From the NCBI GenBank assembly GCA_021014945.1, contig MU266740.1, positions 1 to 17,739 of the forward strand: DNA of 17,739 bases, read 5' to 3'. Shown piece after piece: positions 2,662-17,739 of this stretch; within the stretch, counting starts at the first letter, position 1, and each line of letters opens with the position of its first letter. The position numbers were made by a program, and so were the translations under genes. The notes under the pieces were generated by a model. The model saw nothing but the letters and a program-made list of their open reading frames with translations. It was not told where the DNA came from and ran no database searches. This DNA is from Leucogyrophana mollusca. Lineage: Eukaryota > Basidiomycota > Agaricomycetes > Boletales.

Positions 2662-2997
2662 AGTCTGTCGAGTTTCGTTAGCTTCTCGAGGCGAAGCACG
2701 GCGCTGTGATCACAGGAATGCCTCTATTCTGCCCCCAATGCTGATCCCCACGATTTTCGATCCAAGCTTGCCTTTTTGCACCGATTGAAAGAGCCCCAGG
2801 TCGTGTCATTGATCGAGTGATACTGCACGAACTGGGAGACCTCGTTGACACTCAACCACTTGGAAAACTTTCCTTTGAAAGACTCGAGCGCTCTGAAAGG
2901 CGCGATGATTTAGGAGTTACCGAAATCGTAATAGCGCACCTAGGACCGTCAGTGCATGGTTTCAGATGTGCCGGGGTATACAAGAAGCACTAGAAAA
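2662..2997. other. No supported gene
   Basis: I see no family-like frame, tandem repeat or RNA gene here. It may hold the decayed 5' part of the kinase fragment to its left, because the short minus frame at 2451-2699 has coding-like composition (LTKLDRLCIAARILVVLND) but no recognisable domain. Confidence 0.4.
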
Positions 2998-3327
2998 CTA
3001 TTCATCAATTGTCGACTGACTGGAGAAATACATCAGAAGGCTGGCGGGACGCAATAAAGAGTCGAATCCTGCGTATTCGTCTTCCGAAAGCTGCGAAAAG
3101 TGTGCCGCCGCCGTACGGATCCCGCGGGCATTTGCACGAAGCCAGTCAGAGGGTGCATCAATCAAGGTAATTGAGGTTTCGGGAACCCCCAGGGCATTAC
3201 CAAAGCGTGAAATCATGATATCTGTCCATCGCAAAGATGAACGAGAACCAATGTTCCCCGGTGCATCCGCCGTCCTTGCATCAATTGGGGCGCCCTCTTC
3301 AAAGGTGCTCGGGGGCCGTCCAGACAT
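2998..3327 (-). CDS. Hypothetical protein fragment (109 codons)
   Basis: This is an ATG-to-stop minus frame. The second half looks coding, with alternating hydrophobic and charged residues (SRFGNALGVPETSITLIDAP, then WLRANARGIRTAAAHFSQL). I recognise no family. There is no signal peptide or clear membrane segment. Neighbouring frames on both strands are comparably long, so this could be chance or part of a larger spliced or broken gene. Confidence 0.28.
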   Translation of the reverse strand: MSGRPPSTFEEGAPIDARTADAPGNIGSRSSLRWTDIMISRFGNALGVPETSITLIDAPSDWLRANARGIRTAAAHFSQLSEDEYAGFDSLLRPASLLMYFSSQSTIDE

Positions 3328-3913
3328 CCGTTGGTGGCATGCACGATATTGTCAGTCAAGTATAGAACGGCGTGTATCATCGATGAGCCTCGCTTTGTCA
3401 GATTCCTATAAGACCGTTGTACGCAGTGTATTCCACTAAACGAGTGTAGCTGCAGCAACAAAGCCCTAAGGTGGCTTTTGGCGACACGTTTGTATCGATG
3501 GGTCGGAATAACGTGCCTTCGAAGTCTAGTTCGGATCATTGAAGGCCTCACGTGTCACCAATGGGATAAATTGCTACAGTGAAGGGTGTTACGCTGTAAA
3601 TTTTATGAACCTGGCGTCCACCCCCATTTGCGCAGCTTCCTTCACTCCTGCACGAGAGGCCAGGTCCAAATAGGCGTTCAGCGAGGAGGGGGGTACGGAA
3701 AGGGAGCTGTCTGTTTCGCGGAAGGGGCACGGGGTTCAAGCGCAAAATGGCAGGATATTCGGGTCGAGAGTATGCGCATTTTGGGGAGCTGAGGGTAAAG
3801 AGCGAGGGCAGGAAAGTTGTAAGGAGCGGGGACGTACACATACAGCTATTGAACGGTCGTTCTTGGGGTAAGATTGGACGTGGTGTGCGTCGAGGGAAGG
3901 GATAATGGAGCTG
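3328..3913. other. No supported gene
   Basis: Overlapping short frames exist on both strands (for example 3548-3841 minus, Ser/Pro-rich) but none has family-like text or convincing splice sites. No RNA gene or repeat was seen. Confidence 0.4.
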
Positions 3914-4693
3914 TTACGAATGCGTCAAAACAGCGAGCAGAATATATCGAAATGCTAAAGCGTACAGCAGATTCACCGCCAGGCGGATCCCTATGCACGG
4001 TTTGCATCTGAACTGACGACCAGTGACGCGGTTTTTATCGGAGTGAGCTGCGGGAGTGCCGTCGGGAGGGAGAACGTCCCAAGAGAACGTTGATTTCGCG
4101 TCGTCGCTGAGAAAGATTGCGCGTCCGAGTCTATCGGAACGCCAGCCCAGAATCGGAGTAAGGAACTCGCAGGGCGAGCTAGAACTTAGCTGGTACCTAG
4201 TGATACGCAGTCCGGCCTCCTTCCCTATCCCAAGATGCTCCCAAAAGGCCCACGTCACCTCCAGTCGAACCCCCGCGACTTTCCTCCCCTCGCGTCGCAG
4301 CTGTATCGCGAGGTCGACGTACTCTTTCGTGTCTGCATCGCTCCATGCGGCGGTCGATGCTGATGGTAAGCGAAGTGCTGGGGAACTTCTTGATTTCAGC
4401 GAGGGATAGGTGTGCCGGTACATTGCGATGCGCGCCGCGGGGTGGAGTGCAGCTCGAGGGATACGCATTGTGGGTGGGAGTCTGGAGGATGAGAAGAGAG
4501 AATGACCTCGAGGACGACACGGGTGGCGATCGCAAGTGCGTCTCGTCAAGGCGTAGATGGCGGGGAAGAGCAGAACGAATTCGCTAGCGTTGTTCGGAAC
4601 GACACCGGACTTGACACGAGAGAGTAAGACGAGGATGTCGTGGTGGCTGAGGCGTTTCGGTGTTAGGCTGTGAGTTGACGAAGTGATGATCAA
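3914..4693 (-). CDS. Hypothetical protein, 259 codons, possibly spliced
   Basis: This is the longest minus frame in the left half. Stretches look coding: LSHHDILVLLSRVKSGVVPN near the N-terminus, a central WSDADTKEYVDLAIQLRREG followed by GVRLEVTWAFWEHLGIGKEAG, and a hydrophobic C-terminal end (LAVNLLYALAFRYILLAVL) that could be a membrane segment. The part between about residues 52 and 110 is Arg/Ser/Pro-rich and may be intronic, since another minus frame (4197-4535) overlaps it. I know no family with this layout, and ATG choice and exon limits are open. Confidence 0.33.
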   Translation of the reverse strand: MIITSSTHSLTPKRLSHHDILVLLSRVKSGVVPNNASEFVLLFPAIYALTRRTCDRHPCRPRGHSLFSSSRLPPTMRIPRAALHPAARIAMYRHTYPSLKSRSSPALRLPSASTAAWSDADTKEYVDLAIQLRREGRKVAGVRLEVTWAFWEHLGIGKEAGLRITRYQLSSSSPCEFLTPILGWRSDRLGRAIFLSDDAKSTFSWDVLPPDGTPAAHSDKNRVTGRQFRCKPCIGIRLAVNLLYALAFRYILLAVLTHS

Positions 4694-5211
4694 TATATGG
4701 CAAGCGACGCACCAGTGAAGACCTCATTCACCCCGTCCGCGGAGCAAGGAGGCGACCACACCGGGGCCAGTAATTCTGGAGAACGTCAGCCGCCGGTGAA
4801 AAGCTCTTTAGTGGAGGGATGGCGTACCAGGCTGTAGTTGCACCTTGCCAAGAGAGCAGATGATCTCTGGGTGTGCCGGGCCAGTGGATCTTGGGCGAGG
4901 TTTTGCTCAGTGGAAAGATGAGTCCACCAGCAAAGCACGACAGATAGTGACGGCGAGGTGGTGATCGGCGTGGCAGGTAACGTATCAGCGAATCTCGTTC
5001 ATCTCGTACAGCAGAGCAGTGGAGACGACCTCACCGAGTGCAGGTGGTTAGCTGCGTCAGTGCAGGATGCGATCAAGTATCATCTCGAACAAAGAACAGC
5101 TGAGTAATTGTTCCAAAGTTCACACGCCATGTGACCAAATTCTCGTTTTTCGACCACAACCAACGCTCAAGCGCTCAAGCCCATCGATCCTCGACAAACG
5201 GCAAAGCAGCA
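4694..5211. other. No supported gene; possible upstream region of flanking divergent genes
   Basis: No convincing frame is seen. If the minus frame to the left and the plus frame to the right are real, this would be their shared 5' region. I see no clear TATA box or repeat. Confidence 0.3.
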
Positions 5212-5658
5212 ATGGATTTCCTTGTCGTAAGTGGCGGTTAAGTCGTCCAAAGTCTTCCAAGCTCCAGTCTGCGATTCTGCCCTCCGGACGAGGCTATAAT
5301 GATCGGCTCTGTCCGACACAAAGGTCTGTCACAGTCAAGAACCCTACTCCTAGATTGACTATCACCGTGCATCAAGGGCCCGGAGAGTTGTACCGCCAAC
5401 CAGCGCCAGCCTTGCACCCGCGGTCAAGCTGACATCCCGTGTTGGACCTCAGAAAGACTTCCAAATCGGTGTGTATCTTCATTTCGCCACCATGTACTTC
5501 TCTAACGACCTATTTCCTTCGTGATAGGGAACTCAGATGGGCGTCATCTCGCACCACACATGCATAATGCATTGCAGCAAGCAGCCGAAGTGCTCAAGCC
5601 TCGCAACCAACCACTTCCCTTTAAGCCTACTCTTCGTCCCACCGCCATACACCTCTAG
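5212..5658 (+). CDS. Small hypothetical three-exon gene model
   Basis: ATG at 5212 in a good context is followed after five codons by a strong donor (GTC|GTAAGT at 5227). A second exon can start at 5354 after CTCCTAG and runs in phase (IDYHRASRARR...VGPQKDFQI) to 5468. The next intron, 5469-5527 (59 bp), is convincing: GTGTGT donor, CTAAC branch sequence, GATAG acceptor. The last exon (GNSDGRHLAPHMHNALQQAAEVLKP...) ends at TAG 5656-5658. The product is about 86 residues, basic, with no recognised domain. The first intron is the weak part; the second is well supported by its branch site and phase. Confidence 0.38.
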
Positions 5659-5769
5659 CCGATTTCCTTCGTGGGGGCGACATGGAATCCACTGAAGGAA
5701 AGACAGAATTCTCGCTCACAGGTACGCAGAGATCGAGTTTCTTCGCCCGAAACTTACTCAGCCATTGTA

Positions 5770-6475
5770 GCTGTCGGAATCACTCTCCATCTGATGGCCA
5801 CCCGACGAGCTTCCACGTTGTCAGGCAGCCCAGCGCTTAGCCTCGCTAATTTTGCGGCGAAGGTTTGCAGCCATTTGCATATATGTACAGTAGATGTGGC
5901 GGGCCACTGTAGATTCCGATTCAACGGAGAGTTACCATAGAGAGCAGCTGGAGCTGGCAATCGATCATTGTTATGTCTCGTTCAAGTTGCGTCAAGCGGG
6001 GTACTCCGACCACTCCGCATCGCTGGTCTGGCTTGCTGGTACTCATTCCACTCGATTCAACACGTTTTGCGACAGAGCCGACCTAGGTGAAGCTATTAAG
6101 CTGAATCGTGAAGACCTTGAACTTCTTTTGTGCCCACAAGGGCATCCCGATCACTCTGCGTCACTGAACAACCCCGCTGTCGCGCTCTCCACCCGATCAA
6201 AGTAGTCCGGCGGCAGCGCCGACCTGGACGAAGCCATGGAGCTGAATCACGCAGCCCTCACGTTTCGTCCACCGGAGTACACCATCACTCCATGTCCCTG
6301 AACAATCTCACTTTCACCCTTTTCACCCGGCCCAAGCAGTTTGGCGACAGAGCCGTCTTGGGCGAAGCCATTGAACTCCTTCGTGCAGCCCTGGCGTTGC
6401 GTCCGCAAGGGCACCCCAATAACCCTGCATCCCTGAACAACCCCACCCTCGCACTGTGCTACAGCATTGCCTGCC
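5770..6475 (+). pseudogene. Tetratricopeptide-repeat protein pseudogene
   Basis: The text is typical of agaricomycete TPR arrays (often linked to CHAT domains), with units of about 42 residues: RADLGEAIKLNREDLEL, GHPDHSASLNN, ADLDEAMELNHAAL, VLGEAIELLRAALALRPQGHP, NPASLNNPTLAL. The frame starting at 5894 ends at TAG 6203-6205, exactly where the repeat normally has Gln (RFEQ/RSKQ followed by GG), so a CAG-to-TAG change is likely. A second lesion near 6270 shifts the frame between LTFRPPEY and HHSMSLNNL. The first part (5770-5890) is only weakly TPR-like. TPRs are helical protein-binding scaffolds. With a stop and a frameshift, this copy cannot make a full array. Confidence 0.75.
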
Positions 6476-6646
6476 CACAACGCCAGGGGCGGCAGGCGAG
6501 GCTGAGCGTACGACTACGGCCAGGGCTGAAGAAGCGAATGTCGAGGGAAGCTTGGGGGATCCAACGGTGCGTCTGCTTGGTGCATTTGTTGCTATGGATC
6601 GTACTGATGCACGACGTAGGAACCTGTTTGACACCGAGAAAAGCCC

Positions 6647-6905
6647 CAGGAGGCGATCAACGGGGCGATATACTCTGTTCGTGACAGGAGTATCTCCGAG
6701 ACGTACGACAATCTCTTCCTCTTCTGTACGAAACTGACATCTCACTAGGGGTCTGGATCAACGGTCTGAAAGACAGCGACATCATCCCCGCCGAGCGGCG
6801 CACCGACTTCCTTCAGTGGGTCTTCTGGAACATCCACGAAATTATCGGTGAACACGCGCCTGCGGGATGCGCCCAACAAGCGACAGAAGTCATGTTGTCA
6901 GTGTA
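6647..6905 (+). pseudogene. RhoGEF (DH domain) fragment, frameshifted
   Basis: Three pieces in changing frames spell the start of a fungal DH domain. They are QEAINGAIYSVR (from 6647), then QEYLRDVRQSLPLLYETD, then IIPAERRTDFLQWVFWNIHEII, then, one frame over from 6848, VNTRLRDAPNKRQKS. This order (QEAI...EYLRDV...IIPxERRxDFLxxVFWN...VNTRLRDALxKRQK) is that of Rom/Tus-type RhoGEFs, which load GTP on Rho GTPases. The frame must change near 6692 and again at 6847, each explained by loss of one or two bases. Only about 85 of roughly 200 DH residues are present and no PH or CNH domain follows. It lies directly after the TPR pseudogene; nothing shows that they were ever one gene. Confidence 0.7.
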
Positions 6906-8468
6906 GAGGTGCGTGAGGCAGTCGTAAGATTATTGGGTTCGTGTGTATGGCCCCCGCAGACTACGGAGAGGCTGCCAAATCGCGAAAACTCGAGTCGACC
7001 GGCCATCTAACGAAGTCGACCAATCATCTAGCTCGGTATCCCTTGTTGCTACCAAGCGCGCTTAATGAACTGGGCGGCGCTCAGGGTGATAGTGCATTTC
7101 GTTGGTTTATCTTTCCGATCGTGCGCCACCCACGGTGAGGTAGAAGAACAAACACAAGCGGTACACGGTCTATCGACGTGTAGGTGATTGTCCTGCTTTA
7201 TCACGGCCCCCTACTTACCGCCTGGGATCTAGCCAATACATCTCGGGCTCCTCTTGATCTCTGTCCCGGATGGCAATACCCGCTCTGAGTGACCTTTGGG
7301 TGGCCGGCAAACCAAGACGCTGACGAACAAAAGCTCCTTCAACAAAATATCACCAAGCAGGATGCGCCGTGGGAGAAGGGTTTGATCTTCGAGATGGTCA
7401 CATCTTGATATCTCGCAAGCCACTCTTTCCAACTCCACCCTTCCGTAATCCTTGTGAAAGAGGCTCTCGACGTCCTCACTTTGCGACTGTGTGAGGGATC
7501 TACCCGCATGTCTGGGGACTATGTGTTCGCAGCTGGAATCGCGCGAGGAGGGCGGAATCAACTGCGTGACATCCAGGAATGCAATGAAACAAAGTCTGGC
7601 TTCTTGTTCCTCCATCCCGACGGTTTTGTGGCGCTTGGAAAGCCGATGGGGTGTATAAGGTTCACCGCCCGCCGAGCGAACCCTGTCGGGCTGTACATGC
7701 GCAGGGCGAGAGAACCTCCTTCGCCAAGGCCGCCGCTAATCAGACGTCCACACCATTCTCTTGCGGAAGGCTCGGGCAAGTTTGCGCAGGCGCATGCAGT
7801 TAAGAGTCTCAACCGTGCGAGGTCACCGACGAGCGCACATCGAGTCTTGTCTTCGTTGATGAAGTGATTTCGCGTCCTATATCGGTATCAAGCGGTGAGT
7901 ACTTTGCCACATGGGTCACCGTCATGCTCATCCCTACTTTGGTGCAAGCCGGTCTCTTTCTCGACCGTGCACTCCACGTGTATCGAGGTCCCGCCTCTGG
8001 ACGTCAAAATTTGGGAGACCTTCAACAGTGGCAGGTTCGGCACCGACTCAATGCCGCCTCCAGATTCTCCACGTTACCCCTCCTGCCCCTACCCCCTAAT
8101 CAGTGACTGGGCCGGGGGTGCATGGTTCGCACCACGCGCTAAGGCGGTGTTATTAGTGCTACTTGGCACTAAAACTGAAACTGCGGAATTCTTATCACCG
8201 CAGTTACAGCAATGAACTGGCAAGTGAAGACCCAACGACCAAGTCACACGGACTCAAGGTATCCCACTCAATGTGTAGTGACGGGCTCCTGACACTGGTG
8301 CCAACAAGCTTGCGCAGCGCAATTTTGCATAGTGCGCAGGCATCAAGATCGATACTTAAGCTCAATACTTAAGGTCGAGAAGAGGCACGAACGTGAGATC
8401 GCGAGAACTCGTTGGCAGAAGATATCGCAGCTAAACCCAGGTGCCTTTTAGTGATAGTTCACTTATCG
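6906..8468. other. No confidently supported gene
   Basis: Several frames of 80-137 codons overlap on both strands. The minus frame 7229-7615 has the most coding-like text (SQSEDVESLFHKDYGRVELERVACEISRCDHLED) and the plus frame 7454-7867 is the longest. They overlap antiparallel, so at most one is real. No domain, splice chain, RNA gene or repeat was recognised. Confidence 0.35.
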
Positions 8469-9130
8469 CTAACTCCTTCCGTTCTTTTCCCTCATAGCCT
8501 CGGCATTAGCGCTCAATAACCAACAGCTCCGGCGCCTGGGTGGCCATCGGCATCGCCCAAAATGACGCCTTCCCCCGCACCGCCAAGCCAGTTCTGGCGG
8601 ATCAGTGGGGCTGCGCCGCCTCTCGCCAGTACAGCGGCAGCATTCCCCCCTGCAACCAACGCAGGACTTCATCACGTGCTGCCTCCTCGGCCCACCACCT
8701 CCCCATCTTGCTGACAGAGTACCCCCTCCCGCCCCACATAGCATCGTGTCTTCTCTCACCGGCGCAGTGCCTCCCCCATTTTCGCCACGATGGCGCATCC
8801 TCCCGCCTCCCCGCAAACCATGCCATATTCCGCAGGGGAAATACCTAGGGCGCACGCCCGCGGAGGTGTTAGCTGCGATTAGCGTTGAGGACCACGGGAA
8901 TACGTCGACGGTGAGGGACACGGAGCACATCACCGGGCACGGCACAGCCAGCCAGCTGCGTTACTCGCCATGAAGGGGGTATCTAGTTCCAGCCCCCGGG
9001 TGTCCTGCGCTTCGCTTCTCAGTCCCATCCCCAGACTGCTCGACTCGTTTTGCCTCCTGGGCACCCCGTTCGCACACCACCTCCTGCCACCTTCTCCCAA
9101 TCTGCGGATCTCATGCAAGCTGTGCGCTTT
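8469..9130. other. Pro/Ser/Ala-rich, GC-rich degraded sequence
   Basis: Plus-strand frames here are rich in Pro, Ser and Ala (TPSPAPPSQFW; MAHPPASPQTMPYSAGEIPR at about 8789) but broken by stops and frame changes. Such text occurs in disordered leader regions of retroelement polyproteins, but I cannot identify the source. The minus strand frames mirror the GC bias. Confidence 0.25.
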
Positions 9131-9707
9131 CGAGCCGAGATGTACTAATAATGGTCGTTAATAATGGTTGCTATCGGGGGCACCGGGGTGGCTTATTGGG
9201 GAGGATAAAGTGCATTACACTCGACATTGGCGCCAGATCGTTCGTGGCACCGGCAGGCAGCAATAGTGAGCTGCACATCGGCTGAATTGTTCATATTCTC
9301 ACTCAAGTGATTCGGTTGCGGTCGTGCTCCTCGACCCGCGCGTTGCACACTTACTAGGTCACAACTGCCAGGGATACCTGGCTTAGTAGGTTTGTGTTTA
9401 AGTACACCTTGAATGTGCCGCCGACCGCGCTGATGTACGAAACCCCACTTCAAGCCAGCGTTTCTTTTCCGTTTCAAAGGGGGCGCCTCAGCCGCCCAGT
9501 TCGCTCTGCAGCCTTTGGCCAGTAATCAGGGCATGGCGTAGTTCGTTCCAGCAGCCGATGCTTGATGCGCGCATGCGTTGCGTATAACGAATAAGTCGAC
9601 TTTCGATTCTCCTTGGCCCGGAAAAGGTCTTTGCGGATTTCAAGTAGTATGCACGAGTGATTGATTCCGCAAGGTTGATACTGCCAGGGCCGTGATACCA
9701 CGAGGCT
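9131..9707. other. No supported gene
   Basis: Short minus frames (9193-9477; 9488-9727) show no family-like text. A small tandem copy of TAATAATGGT occurs around 9146-9169. Nothing else was noted. Confidence 0.35.
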
Positions 9708-10671
9708 CTACCGTGAGCGAACGCCATGCCGGTGCTTGCTTGGAGTGATGAGTGCGGCGCTAGATTCTGGGCTTCGATCGTTGAAGCAACGAGTCAGAGG
9801 GGTAGTGGAGTTATCGCTTCTTGGTCGTGCGTCGTTGCCCGAGGCCCCCGCCGCCATGCCCTCCACTGCCTCCTCGACATCACATTCAACCGTGAGGCGC
9901 CGACGAAAGTGCCCTCGCACAAACTCCACCTCCCAGCGCCTCGGGTCCTGCACGCAGCTTTGGGTCAGCCTCAGCCTGGCGTCACACCATATGCACGACC
10001 CACTTTCCCCCCTTGCAGTGGCGACCACAGTGCTGGCGAATATGGCGAGCATACTCGGCGGTGGCGGTGTCAGCTCGACGATCTCGAGTGTCCTCGGCAC
10101 CGATTCCGTGCTGGCGTGCAGCAGGGGCTGCAGGAGAACATCGACCTCTGGACCGTTGAGCATGGTCGAGCCCAAGGGAAAAATTGGACTCTGCAGCCCT
10201 CCATGCCTCAACAGCGTTCCAAATAACCTGCACCCGCGGGTGGAACCCATGCGGATTGATACCCGCACCAGCACTCGTACCCGCTGCTGCAGGTACGGGT
10301 TCTGGCGGGTTCGGGTACGTATTGGCCCTGGGATACCCGTGGGTTCACCCGTGCCTTTCCCCGAGACGGAGTTGAGATCCTCATCGCAGCTTGACGAACG
10401 GCATTCGCGCCCGCGCTCGGGTGATTCGTATTCGTCAGCTGGTGGGGATGGTTCATTGGCTGGGGATGACGCTGGTGAACATTCGGGATCGGACGAACCA
10501 TCTCTTATTGCCTACCTCAACCTTGGTGGCGACAGCAACCACAAAAATTCATACTCGATGTACAGGATCTGGCTTGCGCATCTGAGCGAGTGGTTGGGGT
10601 GGAAAGTCGAGTGTGAGACGCCAAGGATTCCGAGTACGAAGAATTGGGCTTTGCTTGGTACGTCCACGTGA
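9708..10671. other. Overlapping antiparallel open frames, coding strand undecided
   Basis: A 311-codon plus frame (9736-10671) and a 188-codon minus frame (9708-10274) overlap over about 540 bp. GC-rich sequence keeps both strands open. The minus text (DPRRWEVEFVRGHFRRRLTV, CDVEEAVEGMAAG) looks slightly more protein-like over the shared part; the plus text looks better only at 10390-10600 (Ser/Gly/Asp-rich, then IWLAHLSEWLGWKVE). No domain is recognised, and either may be chance. Confidence 0.22.
10216..10345. repeat. Degenerate GGGTAC/CCCGTACCCG simple-sequence tract
   Basis: Blocks such as ACCCGCGGGT, TACCCGCTGC, GGTACGGGTTC, GCGGGTTCGGGTACG and TACCCGTGGGTT alternate between the two strands' versions of one CCCGTA/TACGGG motif over about 130 bp. 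I take it as a decayed simple-repeat or transposon tail; no unit length is exact. Confidence 0.35.
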
Positions 10672-11214
10672 GTGGTGTATCGATATATGAACCGGTCTCC
10701 GTGAGCAGGCGTGCTTTGCTGGCTGCCACGTCGCGGTGCGTTGTCCTTGCTGCTCGTGGTGCTGGCGGCCCGTCTTCTCGCATCGTATCATGTCCCAGAT
10801 CCCGCTCTGCCTTCGCTCCTCTCCTTGTTCTATTTCGCGTCACTAGAGTCCTCACGGCTTTGCATGATCCTGTGATCCTGAATCCGCTCCCGCCCACCCA
10901 GACCGTTTGAGTGTGAGACTCAGCCGTCTCGTTCTTCTCCACTCCCCGCGTCCGAGCCTCAACCCCTTCCGCTTCACCGCCCTTCACGATGCCTCTCTCC
11001 TTCCCGGGCATGCCAGCGGGAAAATATGCCCCGCCAGGCCGCTCCAACGACCTCGTATGGTGCGCACCACTGGTGCTTGGACTGATGGACCAGCCATCAC
11101 CCATGCCACGCCGCGAACTCTCCAAACGACTGAGACTGCGCATAGGCATTTCATGGCCCCTGCCGCTCGTAAACTGGGGCAAAAACACGCTGTTCAATCC
11201 TATTTTGACCTCGG

Positions 11215-12093
11215 CGAAGGAGTGGGGCCTTTTTGTTCAGGCGGGTGACGTCGAACTCACCCTTCACCTAGATGCCAAGGAGAGAGTGACACATTTCGGA
11301 GACAACGGGCGCGCCACCAGCGTGCTCTGCGCAACTAGCCCCCAGCTAGAGAACCAACATCCTGGGAAGGTCTTGTTTGCGAAGGTCTTCTGGCATGAGG
11401 ATTCACGCACCAGCAAACCGGCCATCCTGAAGCAAGTAGACCAGCTCACCAAAGGGAATTCGAAGGTCGAGGGTCACATTCCTGAGCTCCTCCTCCGGCG
11501 CAAGTTTCGGAAACTCCACCGCAGAGCTCCGCGAGGCGCTGGGTATGCTGGCGCCAGGAAGGGAAGTTGCTCACTTGTGCATCCTCGTTTTCCCGAAGCC
11601 ACCACCTATCACCGAGCTATCTGGCGACGAGTTTTTCTCCGCGTGGCGGGATGGTGTCCTTTGCAAGTGCAAGTAACCTGTGATTACGTTGTTACCTGGC
11701 ACCACCCGCAGGCCATCGCGAGCTTTGGAAAGGAGGCATTTGCCGCCGGGACATCAGTGCCAACAACCTGATGCTACTATAGGGACGAATCGGGCTAAGT
11801 GGTGAGCGTTCTGAATGGCTTCGGCCTTGCCGCATTGGTGGGAAACGAAGGTTTCAGTGATGGAAACCAGCGTGCGGGCGCGTTCGTTCATGGCTCGAGA
11901 GCTGCTCCCCCTGGAAGGTCTCAATGGGCAAATCTTGCACATTTATCGGCGCGAAGCGGAATCATTTGTCTGGGTCCTGGCGTGGGTGTGCCTCCGCTTC
12001 CGAGAAGGTCAAGAGACGGATGGCCGAAAGCCGATGAGGAACAATGCCACATGGCAACATGAAATTCCATTGGTGAAGCTTAGGCTAGCTTAG
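11215..12093 (+). pseudogene. FunK1-type fungal protein kinase pseudogene
   Basis: Pieces in successive frames follow the order of agaricomycete FunK1 kinases. They are GRATSVLCATSP (glycine-rich part), VLFAKVFW (beta-3 lysine strand), VEGHIPELL, then one frame over ELREALGML and PPPITELSGDEFFSAWRD (11508-11670), then HRELWKGGICRRDISANNLM (11714-11773; catalytic loop). After these come YYRDESG, then VLNGFGLAAL (metal-binding loop) and RSFMARELL...LNGQILHIYRREAESFVWVLAWV (11880-12000). The family usually has HRDxSxxNLM and LNDFDLA; here the His is Arg and the metal-binding Asp is Gly. Frame changes occur near 11505, between 11672 and 11714 (possibly intron), near 11774 (one extra base) and near 11795-11880, with in-frame stops. 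The start is unclear; an open frame reaches back to 10989. It is not a functional kinase. Confidence 0.8.
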
Positions 12094-12480
12094 GCGCGAG
12101 AAGGCCAGCCAAGTGTGCGTAGGCCTCCAAAGCGCGCATAACTACGAACCACGACTAACCTTGATCCGCGCATTTGCATACATCCATATTTCGACGAGAT
12201 CCCTCTCCCATGGAATGATACCTTGTTGAAATTGAAGGGCGCTGGGGGTGTCGCACTTTACCTGTGTTTCCTCCCCTGGAATGTCCAATTAGCACTTTTC
12301 GGGATAGATTGGCCCGCCAACTTTGGTTATCGGCTCATGTCGCGAGCGCATGCCCGTGTTGTCTACCAAAGCAGTGTTCTTGCCCTGAAGGGGTTGGCTG
12401 CACACCAATGGACCATTGACTGAAGGTCGAAACAGGCACTTCCAGATCCCTACGTCACGCTTCCCCCGTCAAAGCTCGGA
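12094..12480. other. No supported gene; region after the FunK1 pseudogene
   Basis: A 66-codon plus frame (12223-12423) has no recognised similarity. Remnants of the kinase C-terminal tail may be included, but I cannot show it. Confidence 0.3.
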
Positions 12481-12483
12481 CAA

Positions 12484-12594
12484 CTTAAAAGGGTCAAACC
12501 TCGCGGTTTGTTTTTCATCCCCCTCCTCCCATACGCGTCCTTCATAAACTATAACAACCGACTAGCTGTGATATACGCATGTCTGCTTGACACA
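12484..12594 (+). promoter_or_regulatory. Likely promoter/5' region of the small intact gene
   Basis: CTTAAAAG at 12484-12491 is an A/T core element about 105 bp before the ATG. It is followed by a perfect 6-bp stem palindrome CAAACC-TCGC-GGTTTG (12495-12510), then a CT-rich stretch (CATCCCCCTCCTCCCAT), a common feature just before fungal transcription starts, and CACAATG at the start codon. The assignment rests on layout only. Confidence 0.4.
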
Positions 12595-12993
12595 ATGCCG
12601 CCCTTCTACGAAATCGCCATTGCCCGTTTTGAACAACCGTCCCCGAGTTCTGGGTGGGCCTTTATAGTCATATTTACACCTTTGTCAGGCCATTCGATCT
12701 TGTATCGGATTAGCGGCTTACCGGGAGACTACAGTCTCGAGGCACCACAATCAGTGACCCTCAGAGAGGGGGAGAACGGGTACTGGGGCAAGGTCTCAGT
12801 TGGTCGGGTAGACCAAGAGCGCCTGCACCATTTCAGCGCCACGCTTGCGAACATTCCCATCGTTCGGGGTGACGGTTCATGGAGTTGTCAAAATTGGGTC
12901 ATGGCTGGGATTGCCGCACTGCGAGCAGATGACCATTACATCTTCGACAACGCCACTCAGTCGTGGATTGGCGAGTCACTAGCACAGCCCTGA
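12595..12993 (+). CDS. Small conserved agaricomycete protein of unknown function, intact single exon
   Basis: The open frame extends upstream to 12508, but I choose the ATG at 12595 (CACAATGCCG): it has better context, and MPPFYEIAIARF is how I remember this family starting. The product is 132 residues. Conserved-looking points are GWAFIVIFTP near the N-terminus, SILYRISG, VGRV, then PIVRGDGSWSCQNWVMAGIAAL with a single Cys in a W-x-C-Q-N-W-V box, and a short helical end (SWIGESLAQP). The WxCQNWV box recalls a Cys active site, yet no partner His/Asp can be assigned with confidence. There is no signal peptide or membrane segment. The frame is unbroken while its neighbours are wrecked, so the gene is probably live. 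Function is unknown; the family link is from memory. Confidence 0.68.
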   Translation: MPPFYEIAIARFEQPSPSSGWAFIVIFTPLSGHSILYRISGLPGDYSLEAPQSVTLREGENGYWGKVSVGRVDQERLHHFSATLANIPIVRGDGSWSCQNWVMAGIAALRADDHYIFDNATQSWIGESLAQP

Positions 12994-14036
12994 GTGGGAG
13001 GTGATGGAAGATCGGGGTCAGCGGAGGTGCGTCGCGGATTCGGTTGTGGGGGGTCGGTTGGCAATACATACTGACCTGTCAGCTTCTAGAGTTTGCAGCG
13101 GCATGGAGGTCAATGCCAGTTGAACACTTTTGGAACTACATTTGAGATTTACACCTGTGCAATAAGACACATTCATCCCGACCCGTAGAGCTTAGCATGT
13201 AGATAGACCGAGCAGAAGTGTGAAATGGGAAGTTGAACAATAGATCTTGAATTCAGCATCATGGCATGCAGACAGCGGTACCTCCATGGATAGGAGAGAG
13301 GTCAAGAGAAACTGATAAGTAGTGGCTGTCGAACATAGGCGTCTGGCAGGAGGGGGGCGTGGGCATTCGGCGGGAGAAGGCAGTCATCCGACATCCAAAT
13401 TACTAGGTTAGGTGGTTGGGGGGCAAGGACGGGGACCGGGATATTACAGTGCGTTTCCGAACGTTGTAGCGATCCGGACTTTTTTCAGCCTATTGTCAAA
13501 ACCCATTAACTCCGAGTCATTCCGACGCTCAGGAGTCATGGTCCGACCAACTCCGGAGTTAGGAGTTGCGCTCCTACTCCGGACCGTCCGGAGTAAGTGT
13601 ACCATTGTGCGGAGCACTATTGTCGCTTTCCTCCATTTTCCTTAGATTTGTCACCTATTTTTTTTTTTTGACTCCGAGCAAATTTCAGCCACCACATCAC
13701 TGCGGCATGATCCTGCCAGCGCTGGATTGCGTACCTAGTGGCTCGGAATCTCTCGGCACCACTAACCTCAGTTCGATGTCTGATGGATTGCCAAAAATGG
13801 AGGCACTACAACGTTCGGAAATGCACTGTCACCTGAGACACGGCGGAATCTGCACGAGGAACAGATGCGGGAAAGACCGGAGAAAATTTTGTCATTCTGT
13901 GACCTTGTCTGGGCAACGAACAGAGACAATTAATGATATTCAATCTGGGCATGGGTCTGCCACGAGAAGAGACCTGAGATTCAGAGGAGAGATCTAAGCC
14001 TTACACAGGCAATGAATCTGAGTGCATGAGTCTATA
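12994..14036. other. Intergenic stretch between the intact gene and the LTR element
   Basis: It contains the 3' side of the small gene, the CTCCGGAG hairpins listed separately, and a run of T at about 13659-13669. The plus frames at 13412-13645 and 13566-13997 show no family-like text and I do not call them genes. Confidence 0.4.
13553..13594. repeat. Paired CTCCGGAG hairpins
   Basis: CCGGAGTTAGGAG (13553-13565), loop TTGCG, CTCCTACTCCGG (13571-13582) forms a stem with one bulge. Overlapping it, ACTCCGGAC-C-GTCCGGAGT (13576-13594) is a perfect 9-bp inverted repeat with a one-base centre. Related CTCCGAGT and AGGAGTC pieces lie nearby from 13509 on. The two stems are mutually exclusive. I suspect a decayed short dispersed repeat. 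Confidence 0.55.
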
Positions 14037-14210
14037 TGTAACGTTTTCGTTATACTGATCACTCGAGCCACTAACACGACCACTTGGTAGTATTGATGGT
14101 ATGTGAGTGAGTAAGTACAAAGATACTGTAAATAAGGTTTTTGTAACTATTTATAGTAGATAGGAATGAGCATATGAGCTGTCACCCTAAAAGGGTAACA
14201 GCCCCTTACA
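14037..14210 (-). repeat. 3' LTR (174 bp)
   Basis: On the minus strand it begins TGTAAGGGGCTG and ends AACGTTACA, giving the terminal TG...CA and 5-bp inverted ends TGTAA/TTACA usual for LTRs. It contains a TATA box about 55 bp in and a small ACCCT/AGGGT stem near its start. It abuts a purine-rich tract on the internal side, the expected place for plus-strand DNA priming. The left border is inferred from the TGTAA motif, since only one LTR is in view. Confidence 0.68.
14148..14155 (-). promoter_or_regulatory. LTR TATA box
   Basis: The minus strand reads CTATAAATAG, a canonical TATA element inside the LTR. In a full-length element the equivalent copy in the 5' LTR would drive the element's RNA, with a start expected about 25-35 bp further left. 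Confidence 0.55.
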
Positions 14211-14221
14211 CTCCCCCCACT
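14211..14221 (-). other. Polypurine tract next to the 3' LTR
   Basis: The minus strand reads AGTGGGGGGAG immediately before the LTR's TGTAAG. This is the position and composition of the RNase H-resistant primer for second-strand synthesis in LTR retroelements. Confidence 0.65.
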
Positions 14222-14505
14222 AGAGTCCCTTGGGACTCTGATAATTTTAGCGGCGCGCGTCGAGACGCGCGGGTGGTGGTACAGTAATGTACTAAGCAGA
14301 AGTAGTACAGAGGGCAAGTACCGCGGAGGTACTTGCATATTTTAAGTAAGGGAAAATGAAAGAGATGAGGAAAAGGAAAAGGAAAATGAAACAGACGCTA
14401 CCCTAGGGTAGCCTGAGTGATGGAACGCTCACGAGGGCGGGGCCTCGTTAGCGGGGATGTTGGGATGACCGGTTGGGTCATCAGGGACATGGGCGGCGTC
14501 AACAC
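14222..14505 (-). other. Non-coding 3' region of the LTR element
   Basis: It lies between the ORF2 stop and the purine tract and holds no long frame on the element's strand. It includes strong hairpins (listed separately) and, at 14348-14394, a run almost purely of purines on the plus strand (AAAAGGAAAAGGAAAATGAAA), hence pyrimidines in the element's sense RNA. Confidence 0.5.
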
Positions 14506-14985
14506 TCATGTTGACGGGTACATCTCCCTCTCCGTAGTCGAGAGAGACCGCCCCATCTCGTGGTCCACATCTACCAACGGATTGGTGGCGGCGAACCCTC
14601 CGGCGACAAATCCAGATGTCGCACTGGCCGTGACTAAATTGTGCACGGTGGGGGGATCAGCCAGCAGGCTCATCTGCTCGTCGTCTAGCGACGAGAATAA
14701 CCTCGAGGCGGGAGCAGCGTCGGGGGGCTCGGTCCCCTGCTCGCGCGCGATTGCCTCGAGCTCGGCACGTCCCTCGAGAGAGAGGGTGGTACTCGTGTCC
14801 GGGGACGCCGCGATCACCAGGCGTTCGCTGAGGGCGGCGCATTCGTCGTCCGTCAGGAACCCATGACAGGTGTCCAGACAGCACGACAACCAGTGTCGCC
14901 CGTAGGGTTGAATGTCGTCAACCTGATGGAGTGTTACCCCGCACTGCGCTAAGTGCCGGGCAATGTCGTCCTCTGTCAGGTTGTC
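14222..14985. repeat. Tiled short inverted repeats, left block of the LTR element interior
   Basis: Near-consecutive hairpins occur (arm1/arm2). They include 14222-14229/14232-14239 (8 bp), 14254-14261/14264-14271 (8), 14314-14322/14328-14336 (9) and 14397-14412 (16-bp perfect palindrome). Next are 14431-14436/14443-14448 (6), 14464-14470/14476-14482 (7), 14497-14503/14510-14516 (7) and 14603-14608/14617-14622 (6). Then follow 14677-14683/14689-14695 (7), 14712-14717/14737-14742 (6), 14884-14888/14894-14898 (5), 14906-14910/14919-14923 (5) and 14941-14945/14952-14956 (5). They span the non-coding 3' region and the ORF2 3' part alike. Confidence 0.85.
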
Positions 14986-14988
14986 GAC
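14986..14988. repeat. Left 3-bp target-site repeat (GAC) of the fold-back element
   Basis: GAC directly precedes ATCAGGAAA. On the minus strand it is the GTC codon of ORF2, in frame with its partner at 15842-15844. Confidence 0.5.
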
Positions 14989-15166
14989 ATCAGGAAAGTT
15001 ACAATGGCTTATTTGCCTTTTGCAACTTTTTGTACTTTTCGAAATGTTGAAAGCAAGATCAGAGCAATTGTGATTATTCCGGTGGTTCAGAAGTGCTGGA
15101 AACTCAATCAGAGGCCTCAGGACAAGCCAGAAACCAGAAACCGAACCAAACAATTGCACCGAAAAT

Positions 15167-15255
15167 AAAAAGGCAATAGCAGGATTTGAACCAGCGGCCA
15201 CATGATAATTATCGGACAACAACAGCAGCAATGCTTACCACTACACCAAGGCAGC
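15167..15255 (-). ncRNA. tRNA-like Pol III unit in left arm of the fold-back element
   Basis: On the minus strand there is an A box TGGTGTAGTGG (15248-15238), a B box GGTTCAAATCC (15192-15182) and a TTTTT terminator (15171-15167) right after the tRNA-like end. A D-stem (GTGT with GCAT) and a T-stem with one mismatch can form. The 5' and 3' acceptor strands do not pair and the anticodon arm is not normal, so this is a tRNA-derived promoter unit, not a working tRNA. Transcription would run leftwards, out of the element and along the sense direction of the host element. Confidence 0.6.
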
Positions 15256-15303
15256 TTGTGAAAGGTAAGATAATAAGGTAAATATATCTAGCCTTTGGCC
15301 AAC

Positions 15304-15330
15304 AGACTTCAATAAAATTTTGTCAAGTCT
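15304..15330. repeat. Left copy of the perfect 27-bp inverted core
   Basis: It begins AGACTTCAATAAAATTTT and is the exact reverse complement of 15492-15518. It lies on the 5' side of the left tRNA-like unit, so it may be a shared upstream element, or simply the best conserved part of the arm. Confidence 0.75.
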
Positions 15331-15491
15331 TTGCTTGCCTACTGATATCTTTATCACAATAAACTCTTAATTCTTCTGCTATAGTAGACTATGCTTCCAT
15401 CACACTAAAGTTCTATACTAGCTGCAAATCATCAGTAGCACAGTAGGATCTATTTTGTATAGGGCTTGTAGCCAGAGTAGGTGACAAGCAC

Positions 15492-15518
15492 AGACTTGAC
15501 AAAATTTTATTGAAGTCT
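15492..15518. repeat. Right copy of the perfect 27-bp inverted core
   Basis: It begins AGACTTGACAAAATTTTA and pairs exactly with 15304-15330. It is followed by GGTAGATATATTT, matched in the left arm by an inverted AGATATATTT copy. Confidence 0.75.
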
Positions 15519-15559
15519 TTGAGAGGTAGATATATTTGCTTTATTATCATACATGCTAT

Positions 15560-15653
15560 AAGCCCACTTGGTGTAGTGGTAAACATCGGTGTTGTTGTTG
15601 TTGTTTGGCAAATATTGTGTGGCTGCTGGTTCGATTCCGGCTGTTGCATTTTT
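15560..15653 (+). ncRNA. tRNA-like Pol III unit in right arm of the fold-back element
   Basis: A box TGGTGTAGTGG (15569-15579), B box GGTTCGATTCC (15628-15638), terminator TTTTT (15649-15653). The D-stem (GTGT with ACAT) and T-stem (GCTGG with CCGGC, one wobble) can form. The acceptor ends do not pair. A GTT microsatellite (about 15590-15607) fills the anticodon region. It is the inverted, diverged copy of the left unit; transcription would run rightwards, antisense to ORF2. Confidence 0.62.
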
Positions 15654-15841
15654 ATTTTCAGTGCAATTGACTTCGGTTTCGGGCTCATCCTGAGCTCTCT
15701 GATTACACTTATTTTCAGAGATCCATTCTCGGGTCAGCAGGGACCTTATGGTGGCCAGAGCATCTCTGACTTCTGATTTCCCTCATTCCAGAGAAAAAAG
15801 GGCAAAATCAGAGAAAAAAGCCATTTGAACATTTCCTGATG

Positions 15842-15844
15842 GAC
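15842..15844. repeat. Right 3-bp target-site repeat (GAC) of the fold-back element
   Basis: GAC directly follows TTTCCTGATG. A 3-bp repeat alone is weak, but both copies occupy the same codon position of ORF2, which strengthens it. Confidence 0.5.
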
Positions 15845-16006
15845 GTGTCCTTCGAACCGCACAGGTTCGAATGTCGGGGCAATGGGCCATGCGAACATGG
15901 CCAGGTATTCTCGGTACAACCCCGGTACCGGGGCCAACAGGCAGAGGCGGTACTTAAATATAGTACGCCTGCGCTCGTTGGACCCCTTCTCGAAGCTGGG
16001 GTTGAG

Positions 16007-16040
16007 GCGCGACGTGAGGATGTGACCCCTCATGTCGCGC
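16007..16040. repeat. 13-bp hairpin within ORF2
   Basis: GCGCGACGTGAGG pairs with CCTCATGTCGCGC across an 8-base loop, with one G-T pair where a CpG in a perfect arm would have become TpG. Confidence 0.85.
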
Positions 16041-16324
16041 AGACTAACGGTTCCACCCTCGAGTGGAACGCCGTGGAATTCTTTCGAGTAGAATTCGATC
16101 CAGTCCTTCCACTCCTGCGGAGTGGAAGTGAGCCTGGGTTGAGGCAACGCACCCTCTTTTTTCACCGGCTTAGGGTGAATGCCTCGGGCAGGCACATTGG
16201 AACGAGCGTCGGCACCCGAGGGTGCCGCAGGAGGGTGGTCTTCCCTCCACTTGGCGAACCAAGTGGGAGTCCTCCACTCCTCCAAGACCACGGCTTGAAT
16301 CCAAGTCCTCGGGGAGGCCTGTTG

Positions 16325-16378
16325 CGCGTGCGCGACATAGCGTTTGATCTTATAGATCGTTTCTATGTCGCGCATGCG
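16325..16378. repeat. Longest hairpin of the tiled set (16-bp stem)
   Basis: CGCGTGCGCGACATAG (16325-16340) pairs with CTATGTCGCGCATGCG (16363-16378) with one G-T pair. The 22-base loop contains a smaller GATC-TTATA-GATC stem. It lies within ORF2 coding sequence. Confidence 0.85.
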
Positions 16379-16456
16379 TGGATTGTGCGCACGTGCGAAG
16401 TAACTGCGCCATTCCGCGTAGTTGTTGAACAGCGGAATGGCGTCTTGACGGGCGCC

Positions 16457-16534
16457 GTCAAGGGAAGGTGGGCCTGTTGGCCATGGTGGTCTCCGCACGC
16501 AGCCTAGCTGCGCCGGAGAAGCGGTATTCCATAC
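16457..16534 (-). other. ORF1/ORF2 junction: candidate +1 frameshift site or 61-bp intron
   Basis: ORF1 ends TTC-CCT-TGA-C. Slipping +1 from CCT to CTT at the stop enters ORF2 (CTT-GAC), the logic used by stop-dependent +1 frameshifts. The stop lies inside a perfect 8-bp stem (16444-16451 with 16455-16462), and an 11-bp stem follows (16407-16442). Alternatively, an intron from 16534 (GTATGG) to 16474 (CAACAG) joins codon 401 of ORF1 to ORF2 in phase. Only RNA or protein data can decide. Confidence 0.45.
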
Positions 16535-17735
16535 CGCCAACCAGGACCACTAAGGTCCCGTCCTTTTCTCCCTCGAAGCGGAAGAGCAGGTTCCCCCGCT
16601 CCCCTTCCAGCCACCCTGGGGGTTGCTCGCCACGTCCATAGAACGTGGAGTCGTCGGGGAGGACCTCGGGGGCGTCCTCATGTACTTCCGCGGCTTGGGG
16701 GGCAGTCTCGACCGCCTTGCCCTTGTCTCTCCTTGCCACGGTCTTGCGTGGCGGGTTGGGAACGGAGCTGCTCGCCCCGTTGTCTTCGTAGACCGCTTGG
16801 GTCTGCTCATCTCGCGATACTCGTATCGCGCGTCTCATATCGCACTCCTCCTCGGAGTTGGATTCGTCAGTGACGTATCCGAAGAGGTTGGGGTTGACCT
16901 CCTGGTTCAACCGTTTGCGGGCCCGCTTGGACAACTTCTCTGGTGGGGACGAGTCCCTCCAGATGTCCTTCCCTTTCCCCTTCTCGGGGATCGGGGCTGC
17001 AGGTCCCTTCCCCTTTTCAGAGGTCGGGACCGCAGCGGGCTTGCTCGCGATATTGGGCAACGAAGATGTTGCCGGGGTTTTAGTTGACAACGCGAGCGTT
17101 GTCGTTGGCTTTGCGTGCGATGCTAGCGTCGCAAGGCCCGCTGAGGGCAGTTCGAATGTCTTACCCTTGTTGAGCAAGGGTGGTTTGGACGTCGGGGGAA
17201 CAAAGCTCGAAGCTTTGCCCCTCGTTGTCGGTTTCGAGGAGCCGCCGCTCCCCCGCCCCCCTTGAGCAACCGGCGGGATGCTCACGGAAGCCAGTTGCGC
17301 CTGCGCAACGGCCAGCTCTTCCTTGAGAGTTGCGATTTCAGAGTCCTGATCTCGCAACTCGTGCAGATATTCGTCACGAGTGACGATCACCTCCTCCATA
17401 GTGCGACGAAAACCTCGCACGTCGTCCTCCAAGAGGGCGACATCGCATCCGGGCAGCATGCCACGATTTGCGCGATCAGTGTAGAAGCTGTCGCGCGCCT
17501 CGATGGCGGCCGCAAAGCTGCCCGACGTACTGTCCACCTCACTGAGGTGCTCGATGTACGCGGAGCAGTGGGGGCAGCCGGTAGCATGAGCTACCGTCTG
17601 CAAGAAGGGTTTGAATACCCACCTGTGGGGTGGGCGTTTTGATGAGCGACCATCGTCGTCGCTTGGACGCCGCGACCTCTTCGACGTTGCCGTCGTCGAG
17701 GGCGCGGAGGGCGGTTCGGTGGACTCATGGTCCAT
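16458..17735 (-). CDS. Gag-like ORF1 of the LTR element (425 codons)
   Basis: It starts at an ATG in strong context (GCCCATGG) four bases from the right edge. Residues 1-40 are disordered and basic, with clusters SKRSRRP and SSKRPPHR that could be nuclear signals. ATGCPHCSAY (about 51-60) has a CxxC that may bind metal with another Cys. Residues about 98-150 are an Arg/Glu/Leu coiled coil (LLEDDVRGFRRTMEEV... to LKEELAVAQAQL). Then comes a long Ser/Pro/Thr/Lys-rich part with repeated EKGKG, a basic KLSKRARKRL segment near 280, and a folded-looking end (LLFRFEGEKDGTLVVLVGG). No retroviral-type CCHC knuckle is seen. The TGA stop (16460-16458) overlaps ORF2 in the next frame. Role inferred: RNA-packaging shell protein. 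Family remembered as agaricomycete hypothetical proteins. Confidence 0.65.
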   Translation of the reverse strand: MDHESTEPPSAPSTTATSKRSRRPSDDDGRSSKRPPHRWVFKPFLQTVAHATGCPHCSAYIEHLSEVDSTSGSFAAAIEARDSFYTDRANRGMLPGCDVALLEDDVRGFRRTMEEVIVTRDEYLHELRDQDSEIATLKEELAVAQAQLASVSIPPVAQGGRGSGGSSKPTTRGKASSFVPPTSKPPLLNKGKTFELPSAGLATLASHAKPTTTLALSTKTPATSSLPNIASKPAAVPTSEKGKGPAAPIPEKGKGKDIWRDSSPPEKLSKRARKRLNQEVNPNLFGYVTDESNSEEECDMRRAIRVSRDEQTQAVYEDNGASSSVPNPPRKTVARRDKGKAVETAPQAAEVHEDAPEVLPDDSTFYGRGEQPPGWLEGERGNLLFRFEGEKDGTLVVLVGGMEYRFSGAARLRAETTMANRPTFP

Positions 17736-17739
17736 GGGC

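What the first reader, a model, noticed from the sequence alone, without database searches (positions are those of the whole stretch)
14222..17734. An LTR element whose interior is tiled end to end with short perfect inverted repeats
Almost every 25-50 bp of the element interior holds a separate hairpin. In the right 1.9 kb alone I count 22 with arms of 7 bp or more, several of 10-16 bp. My rough estimate for random DNA of this GC (pairing chance about 0.26 per base pair, loops up to about 16) is two to three such arms; 11-16-bp arms should be absent. The pattern crosses both reading frames and the non-coding 3' region, so protein sequence alone does not explain it. Possible roles are compact folding or packaging of genomic RNA, protection from silencing, or recognition sites for the Gag-like protein. 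It could also be a by-product of reverse-transcriptase strand switching that turns near-palindromes into perfect ones. I know of no described retroelement with this layout.
Basis: seen in the sequence. Interest (0 to 1): 0.92.

Follow-up and report, generated by a model that had tools for sequence, protein, structure and literature searches.

The report
Retrotransposon lineage packed with small hairpins
A family of virus-like jumping genes in a wood-decay mushroom carries dozens of small, evolutionarily maintained hairpins along all of the sequence that could be seen, even inside its enzyme genes, more densely than the three RNA phages examined as a yardstick, which suggests that its RNA genome is kept tightly folded.

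Summary
The hairpin excess is real. In 14222-17739 there are 24 perfect inverted repeats (arm >=7, loop 3-16) against 2.8 in shuffles; window 1-13500 has 4. Corrections: the right 1.9 kb holds 16, not 22; the longest perfect arm is 11; 14989-15841 is an insertion without excess. The window (Leucogyrophana mollusca) holds only the 3' end of a Ty3/gypsy element on the minus strand: LTR 14037-14210 and an extra ORF 3' of integrase, not a Gag. Other copies show tiling through protease, RT, RNase H, integrase and non-coding parts. It survives codon-preserving shuffles (RT-RNase H 16 against 1.1, 0 of 200). Pairing is maintained: all 16 double changes at the window's hairpins stay paired; covariation exceeds 500 of 500 shuffles; stems diverge less and loops more than the rest. 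All 13 RT fragments of one group show the excess; 10 of 10 other gypsy fragments have at most one arm >=7. Density is about 2-5 times that of MS2, Qbeta and PP7. Best reading: selection for a genomic RNA folded into local hairpins; RNA level and benefit are inferred.

The parts
14037..14210 (-). 3' LTR, 174 bp, TGTAA...TTACA; LTR-size matches (165-177 bp) at six other places
14211..14221 (-). polypurine tract next to the LTR (pyrimidines on +), which makes the minus strand sense
   Evidence: by eye
14222..14988 (.). tiled stretch, 3' non-coding and end of the 3' ORF region (7 arms >=7 against 0.58 in shuffles, counted on 14222-14990)
14989..15841 (.). foldback insertion, not part of the tiling, absent from the other copies aligned
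15842..17739 (.). tiled stretch (16 arms >=7 against 1.49 in shuffles)
16458..17735 (-). extra ORF (425 aa) lying 3' of integrase in the element; in L022 a related ORF has 505 aa
15746..16540 (-). second minus-strand ORF (264 aa), reaching into the insertion; annotated together with the first as a 705-aa protein (P0121)
14222..14239 (.). hairpin arm 7 loop 4; perfect in 10 of 11 loci
14254..14271 (.). hairpin arm 7 loop 4; perfect in 3 of 11 loci
14288..14309 (.). hairpin arm 7 loop 8; perfect in 7 of 11 loci
14314..14336 (.). hairpin arm 9 loop 5; perfect in 10 of 11 loci
14464..14482 (.). hairpin arm 7 loop 5; perfect in 8 of 9 loci; one pair differs on both sides and stays paired in L023, L024, L030
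14497..14516 (.). hairpin arm 8 loop 4; perfect in 3 of 9 loci
14677..14695 (.). hairpin arm 7 loop 5; perfect in 2 of 7 loci
15851..15871 (.). hairpin arm 8 loop 5; perfect in 3 of 5 loci
15885..15902 (.). hairpin arm 7 loop 4; perfect in 6 of 6 loci
16050..16069 (.). hairpin arm 7 loop 6; perfect in 2 of 4 loci
16076..16096 (.). hairpin arm 7 loop 7; perfect in 2 of 4 loci
16106..16128 (.). hairpin arm 10 loop 3; perfect in 4 of 4 loci
16210..16227 (.). hairpin arm 7 loop 4; perfect in 2 of 4 loci
16247..16266 (.). hairpin arm 8 loop 4; perfect in 2 of 4 loci
16407..16442 (.). hairpin arm 11 loop 14; perfect in 2 of 4 loci
16444..16462 (.). hairpin arm 8 loop 3; perfect in 2 of 4 loci
16521..16537 (.). 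hairpin arm 7 loop 3; perfect in 1 of 4 loci
16813..16830 (.). hairpin arm 7 loop 4; perfect in 2 of 5 loci; one pair differs on both sides and stays paired in L023
17086..17103 (.). hairpin arm 7 loop 4; perfect in 0 of 5 loci
17163..17181 (.). hairpin arm 7 loop 5; perfect in 4 of 5 loci
17201..17217 (.). hairpin arm 7 loop 3; perfect in 2 of 5 loci
17327..17360 (.). hairpin arm 9 loop 16; perfect in 2 of 5 loci
17579..17596 (.). hairpin arm 7 loop 4; perfect in 3 of 4 loci; arm 12 if one mismatch is allowed (17574-17601)

Best explanation
The window holds the 3' end of a Ty3/gypsy LTR retrotransposon (sense = minus strand) of a lineage that has evolved a genomic RNA folded, wherever it could be seen, into short local hairpins (arms 6-11 bp, loops mostly 3-7 nt). 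Selection acts on the pairing rather than on the letters of the stems, in coding and non-coding parts alike. Shown: the excess, its independence of protein and codon use, covariation, slow stems and fast loops, and restriction to one group of RTs in this genome. Inferred: that the selected molecule is the sense genomic RNA rather than DNA, and that the benefit is physical (compaction for packaging in virus-like particles and protection from nucleases, antisense or small-RNA attack), as proposed for RNA viruses with genome-wide structure (recalled).
For: Codon-preserving shuffles: RT-RNase H 16 against 1.12 (sd 0.97), L066 integrase ORF 20 against 1.52, both 0 of 200. Mean folding z of 150-nt sense windows -3.9, -3.4 and -3.6 in L022, L066 and the window, 0.4 in host DNA. 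Pairs changed on both sides: 20 paired against 3 not in close loci, 16 against 0 at the window's hairpins; RT alignment of 12 rows: covariation score 0.106 against 0.081 shuffled (0 of 500) and 0.028-0.046 slid. Divergence stem 0.072, other 0.115, loop 0.143; third codon positions stem 0.126 against 0.178 (p 0.0015) in L022 and 0.084 against 0.173 (0 of 2000 permutations) in L066. 90 of 96 hairpins have loops of 7 nt or fewer although 16 was allowed; closing C-G 52, G-C 20 (window and L022 partly homologous). RNA phages MS2, Qbeta and PP7 give the same kind of signal, weaker.
Against: No RNA was probed. No clear strand bias of non-Watson-Crick pairs: single changes in stems give G-U on the sense strand 69 times and on the other strand 70 times; states shared by two or more loci 28 to 30; conserved one-off stems 10 G-U to 6 A-C, window and L022 overlapping. 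MS2 (6:5), Qbeta (7:5) and PP7 (0:3) show no G-U bias either, so this test does not decide. The fold advantage of the sense strand is small (z difference -0.55 +-0.21 in L022, -0.07 +-0.23 in L066). In the window's own ORF stems are not slower (third positions 0.197 against 0.209, first positions 0.133 against 0.102; 26-30 stem sites). In distant subfamilies 36 of 113 and 21 of 60 hairpins are lost at the homologous place. The number of further pair types does not exceed shuffles (304 of 500). Hairpins used for divergence were chosen in a relative of the loci compared, so some ascertainment bias remains.
Confidence: 0.66

Rival explanations
1. Mutational by-product: the reverse transcriptase of this group switches strands within a template and keeps turning near-palindromes into perfect ones; no benefit of the hairpins is needed.
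For: Stems are overwhelmingly Watson-Crick with no clear G-U preference; small loops suit snap-back; the trait follows one RT group.
Against: Unbiased correction should keep arms complementary without slowing their divergence (own reasoning), yet in L022 and L066 stems are slower, also at third codon positions, and loops are faster. Arms are hardly longer in non-coding than in coding sequence (mean 7.1 against 7.0, from the counts). Ten other gypsy RT fragments of the same genome show at most one arm >=7. RNA phages, which use an RNA replicase (general knowledge), show the same kind of signal.
Confidence: 0.18
2. DNA-level function: hairpins or cruciforms in the single-stranded cDNA or in the integrated DNA are what is selected, for example to affect chromatin, integration or recombination.
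For: Strand symmetry of non-Watson-Crick pairs; both strands fold almost equally well.
Against: Small sense advantage in L022; the 174-bp LTR itself carries little of it (one 11-bp arm with one mismatch at 14178-14202 and one at 14124-14158); RNA genomes give similarly symmetric results.
Confidence: 0.1
3. Palindromic binding sites for a dimeric protein (Gag, integrase or a host factor).
For: Regular arm size.
Against: Stem letters differ from hairpin to hairpin and change freely as long as pairing is kept; no shared motif is apparent in the listed stems (by eye).
Confidence: 0.03
4. Chance, base composition, protein sequence or codon use.
For: None found.
Against: Dinucleotide and codon-preserving shuffles; other gypsy RT fragments of the same genome lack it.
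Confidence: 0.01

Closest known systems
Genome-wide hairpin structure of RNA phages of Fiersviridae (MS2, Qbeta, PP7)
   Same: Short-loop perfect hairpins in excess of shuffles through a coding genome, strongly negative folding z (-2.8 to -3.2), no G-U bias among one-off stems
   Different: RNA-only replication; 2.0-3.1 perfect arms >=7 per kb against 6.4-9.7 in this lineage; here written in a DNA-integrated retroelement
Genome-scale ordered RNA structure of RNA viruses (concept recalled; papers seen only as listings)
   Same: Folding energy below shuffles over whole genomes
   Different: Here visible as discrete perfect hairpins, in an LTR retrotransposon lineage
Ty1, Ty3 and HIV-1 genomic RNA (PMC11381356: abstract, passages, section 29)
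   Same: Retroelement RNAs with structured regions; Ty1 and Ty3 accumulate high-probability pairs in the RT domain in vivo
   Different: That paper calls them mosaics, A-rich, with stable structured regions up to 30% of Ty1 and Ty3; here hairpins occur throughout the parts seen
Quasipalindrome template-switch mutation (PMC7202029, listing and start of abstract only)
   Same: Turns imperfect inverted repeats into perfect ones
   Different: Described there for E. coli replication; does not predict slow stems and fast loops

Membership tests
Ty3/gypsy LTR retrotransposon | domain order PR-RT-RNaseH-IN | tested here: met
   L022, minus strand: RVP_2, RVT_1, RT_RNaseH, Integrase_H2C2 and rve in that order
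Ty3/gypsy LTR retrotransposon | LTR with TG...CA ends and a polypurine tract | tested here: met
   14037-14210 and 14211-14221 (tract by eye)
Ty3/gypsy LTR retrotransposon | 5' LTR and primer-binding site | tested here: inconclusive
   copies were followed upstream of Gag in L065, L066 and L069, but no LTR match was found there; primer-binding site not tested
Ty3/gypsy LTR retrotransposon | Gag with CCHC knuckle upstream of PR | tested here: inconclusive
   CCHC-like motif by eye in L065, L066 and L069 ORFs; no Pfam Gag match in the three pieces tested
Chromovirus branch | chromodomain after integrase | tested here: inconclusive
   Pfam gives SH3_Tf2-1 above cut-off but no chromodomain match up to E 0.1
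Genome-scale ordered RNA structure | folding energy and hairpins beyond dinucleotide and codon-preserving shuffles over coding and non-coding parts | tested here: met
Genome-scale ordered RNA structure | pairing conserved with covariation | tested here: met
   weaker in distant subfamilies
Genome-scale ordered RNA structure | structure present in the RNA itself | not testable with these tools
   needs chemical probing
LARD/TRIM non-autonomous element | no coding capacity for pol (definition recalled) | tested here: not met
   pol domains in L022 and pol ORFs in L066

The most novel reading that the evidence does not exclude
An LTR retrotransposon lineage has converged on the hairpin-packed genome design of single-stranded RNA phages, laying a second, pairing-level code over all its genes, because its packaged RNA must be compact and must escape small-RNA or antisense silencing in the fungal host.
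Probability: 0.35. Interest if true: 0.87.

Novelty: new variant of a known kind. Interest (0 to 1): 0.76.

Why it matters
Genome-wide RNA structure is discussed mainly for RNA viruses, where its purpose is debated (recalled). A DNA-integrated element leaves many copies as a record, with a clean contrast inside one genome (one RT group with the trait, other gypsy lineages without), so the origin, upkeep and benefit of such structure become testable. It is also a coding sequence that carries a dense second layer of information across its enzyme genes.

Tried and rejected
Chance and codon effects: rejected. G-U against A-C strand test: symmetric, and found uninformative once RNA phages gave the same. 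Periodic spacing: not seen (CV 0.73). Clearly longer arms in non-coding sequence: not seen. Relatives in IMG/VR: no match to the patterns used. Rfam at gathering score on the window: no match. ARAGORN: no tRNA. Pfam on the 3' ORFs: nothing above cut-off. Papers: searches (0 papers; 5; 20 of 21 listed; 15 of 40; 0; 12 of 169) looked for such an element or its mechanism; some searches looked for the host and yardsticks. No title or abstract start listed describes an LTR element tiled with hairpins; this is a claim about these searches and listings only.

Results that weaken single tests: the protease ORF of L022 is not significant at arm >=7 (1 against 0.28; 44 of 200 shuffles reach it); at arm >=8 window ORF3 (44 of 200), L022 ORF3 (75 of 200) and the protease piece (14 of 200) are not significant. 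L067 is weak at arm >=7 (3 against 0.3). L083, outside the group, has 5 arms >=6 against 0.9. In the first subfamily check L067 double changes were 3 paired and 3 not. Only copies in this one genome were available as DNA.
Full report
WHAT IS THERE. The window is a whole contig (C414) of a 32.3-Mb, 545-contig genome. Names attached to relatives of the window's ORF give the host as Leucogyrophana mollusca; the top hit lies on a 17739-base contig. At its right end the contig breaks inside a repeated element. The left border is an LTR at 14037-14210 (TGTAA...TTACA, 174 bp) followed by a polypurine tract on the minus strand; LTR-size matches of 165-177 bp occur at six other places. The minus strand is therefore sense and the window holds the 3' end. 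Locus L022 (C378) runs on through an SH3_Tf2-1 domain, integrase, RNase H, RT and protease, and L065, L066 and L069 continue upstream into ORFs with a CCHC-like motif (by eye; no Pfam Gag match). The two ORFs of the finding are thus not Gag but an extra ORF region 3' of integrase. Of 7 relatives of the 425-aa ORF found (only the 7999 candidates sharing most words were scored), 6 are named L. mollusca and 1 is unnamed. No copy with both LTRs was seen; the 5' end was not reached.

THE OBSERVATION. With non-overlapping perfect inverted repeats of arm >=7 and loop 3-16, 14222-17739 has 24 (shuffles 2.80, sd 1.65, max 8 of 100), and window 1-13500 has 4 (11.2 in 20 shuffles). The pieces 14222-14990 (7 against 0.58) and 15842-17739 (16 against 1.49) carry it; 14990-15841 does not (1 against 0.88). 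Copies that span that place align up to 14987-14988 and again from 15842-15845, so that stretch is an insertion; it is an imperfect foldback. The finding's 22 in the right 1.9 kb and its perfect arms up to 16 bp are too high; the longest perfect arm is 11 bp.

EXTENT. In L022 the excess runs through all of the element present, 62 hairpins of arm >=7 in 6.1 kb, and it goes on in L065, L066 and L069. Codon-preserving shuffles (200 each, 10 ORF pieces) give at arm >=7: RT-RNase H of L022 16 against 1.12; L022 integrase 11 against 1.44; L066 integrase 20 against 1.52; L066 RT 12 against 1.12; L066 Gag end plus protease 8 against 1.08; L022 ORF3 10 against 1.73; window ORF3 7 against 1.52; L022 SH3 piece 7 against 0.65; window 15840-16540 10 against 1.31; none of these 9 was reached by a shuffle. 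The tenth, the 125-codon protease piece of L022, is not significant (1 against 0.28; 44 of 200). Folding of 150-nt windows gives mean sense z of -3.93 (40 windows, L022), -3.41 (37, L066) and -3.56 (17, window), antisense -3.69, -3.17 and -3.46; 30 host windows give 0.43 and -0.04.

MAINTENANCE. With L022 as reference and 11 other loci (some are pieces of one contig), pairs changed on both sides are Watson-Crick 20 times and mismatched 3 times; single changes leave 139 wobble-type and 17 other mismatches. At the window's 23 hairpins outside the insertion, 141 hairpin-by-locus comparisons give 82 perfect, 32 with one pair off and 27 with more; all 16 double changes stay paired; these are cells, not independent events. 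With 8 loci of subfamilies, hairpins taken from either side, double changes are 59 paired, 2 G-U type and 29 not, and of the hairpins 71 of 173 are kept, 28 partial, 57 lost and 17 gapped. An alignment of 12 rows over a 0.95-kb RT piece with 11 helices of L022 gives 81.9% paired cells (79.5% shuffled; 32-43% when partners are slid), 23 cells changed on both sides (10.5 shuffled, 0 of 500; 3-7 slid) and covariation score 0.106 (0.081 shuffled, 0 of 500; 0.028-0.046 slid); pairs with a double change 11 against 7.4 (22 of 500); further pair types are not above shuffles (304 of 500). Comparing loci A and B at hairpins chosen in a third locus C, mean divergence is 0.072 in stems, 0.115 elsewhere and 0.143 in loops; stems are lower in 163 of 172 triples, which are not independent. 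By codon position, L022 and L066 stems are slower at all three positions (permutation p 0.0000-0.023); the window's ORF shows no difference on 26-30 stem sites per position.

WHO HAS IT. Over the DNA that matches the RT protein, 13 of 13 fragments of one group (58-100% identity of the best piece) have more arms >=6 and >=7 than shuffles, while 10 of 10 fragments of other gypsy lineages (30-41%) have at most one arm >=7; one of these, L083, has 5 arms >=6 against 0.9. In the tree of 22 of the 23 rows the ten outsiders are separated with support 1.00. Longer stretches agree: L071 21 against 1.6, L074 17 against 2.1, L072 9 against 0.9, L075 6 against 0.6 and L076 5 against 0.7; L073 2 against 1.9, L077 2 against 1.3 and L078 (host or other repeat) 0 against 0.9. 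L067 is weaker (3 against 0.3).

YARDSTICK. Perfect arms >=7 with loop 3-8 per kb: L022 9.7, L066 8.6, window 7.4, L071 6.4; MS2 2.0, Qbeta 3.1, PP7 2.5; three other gypsy families 0-0.33; host 0.07; shuffles of these sequences 0.13-0.37. Mean sense folding z is -3.3 to -3.9 in the lineage, -2.8 to -3.2 in the phages, -0.8 to 0.2 in the other gypsy families. Among stems with one non-Watson-Crick pair, G-U to A-C is 15:8 in L022, 6:10 in L066, 1:3 in the window part, 3:7 in L071, 6:5 in MS2, 7:5 in Qbeta and 0:3 in PP7, so this ratio cannot tell RNA from DNA here.

HOW IT MOST LIKELY WORKS. Shown: a lineage-wide, codon-independent excess of short hairpins whose pairing is maintained while stem letters change. 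Inferred from general knowledge of packaged RNA genomes: the sense genomic RNA folds locally into small stable hairpins that compact it for particles and shield it from nucleases or antisense and small RNAs; arms of 6-11 bp are probably too short to serve as Dicer substrates. Short loops (90 of 96 with 7 nt or fewer) and the C-G over G-C closing preference (52 to 20, in which window and L022 are partly homologous) suit selection for hairpin stability. Strand switching by RT could supply raw material, but as the only cause it does not explain slow stems and fast loops.

NOVELTY. The paper searches named in Tried and rejected listed no title or abstract start describing such an element. The Ty3 SHAPE paper (PMC11381356: abstract, passages, section 29) describes retroelement RNAs as mosaics, with stable structured regions up to 30% of Ty1 and Ty3. 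A Boletales transposon paper (PMC5689174: passages) names L. mollusca KUC20120723A-06 among its genomes; it holds no mention of hairpins or secondary structure. An LTR retrotransposon with genome-wide structure can be put together from known ideas; the density and the layout of discrete hairpins are new as far as these searches go.

Noticed in passing
14989-15841: Foldback insertion in the element: terminal inverted repeats CATCAGGAAA/TTTCCTGATG, possible 3-bp target duplication GAC (by eye), and inner arms 15151-15230 / 15590-15669 (80% complementary) that carry tRNA-like A- and B-box sequences in opposite directions (boxes by eye). ARAGORN and Rfam find no tRNA.
   Followed up: partly
1-13500: Host DNA has fewer perfect hairpins than its own shuffles: 4 arms >=7 against 11.2.
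   Followed up: no
13494-13623: A different repeat, 90% identical to a stretch of C170 (L025 3263-3392), with ACTCCGGA-type inverted repeats of its own (by eye).
   Followed up: no
16458-17735 and L022:1499-3016: Extra ORF 3' of integrase with no Pfam domain above cut-off, annotated as part of a 705-aa protein (P0121); 6 of its 7 found relatives are named L. mollusca.
   Followed up: partly
14178-14202: 11-bp hairpin with one G-U (sense) inside the 3' LTR; the G-U pair is kept in 5 of 5 covering loci at the homologous place L022 1253-1277.
   Followed up: no
12508-12993: 161-aa ORF with below-cut-off matches to DUF6540 and DUF6914.
   Followed up: no
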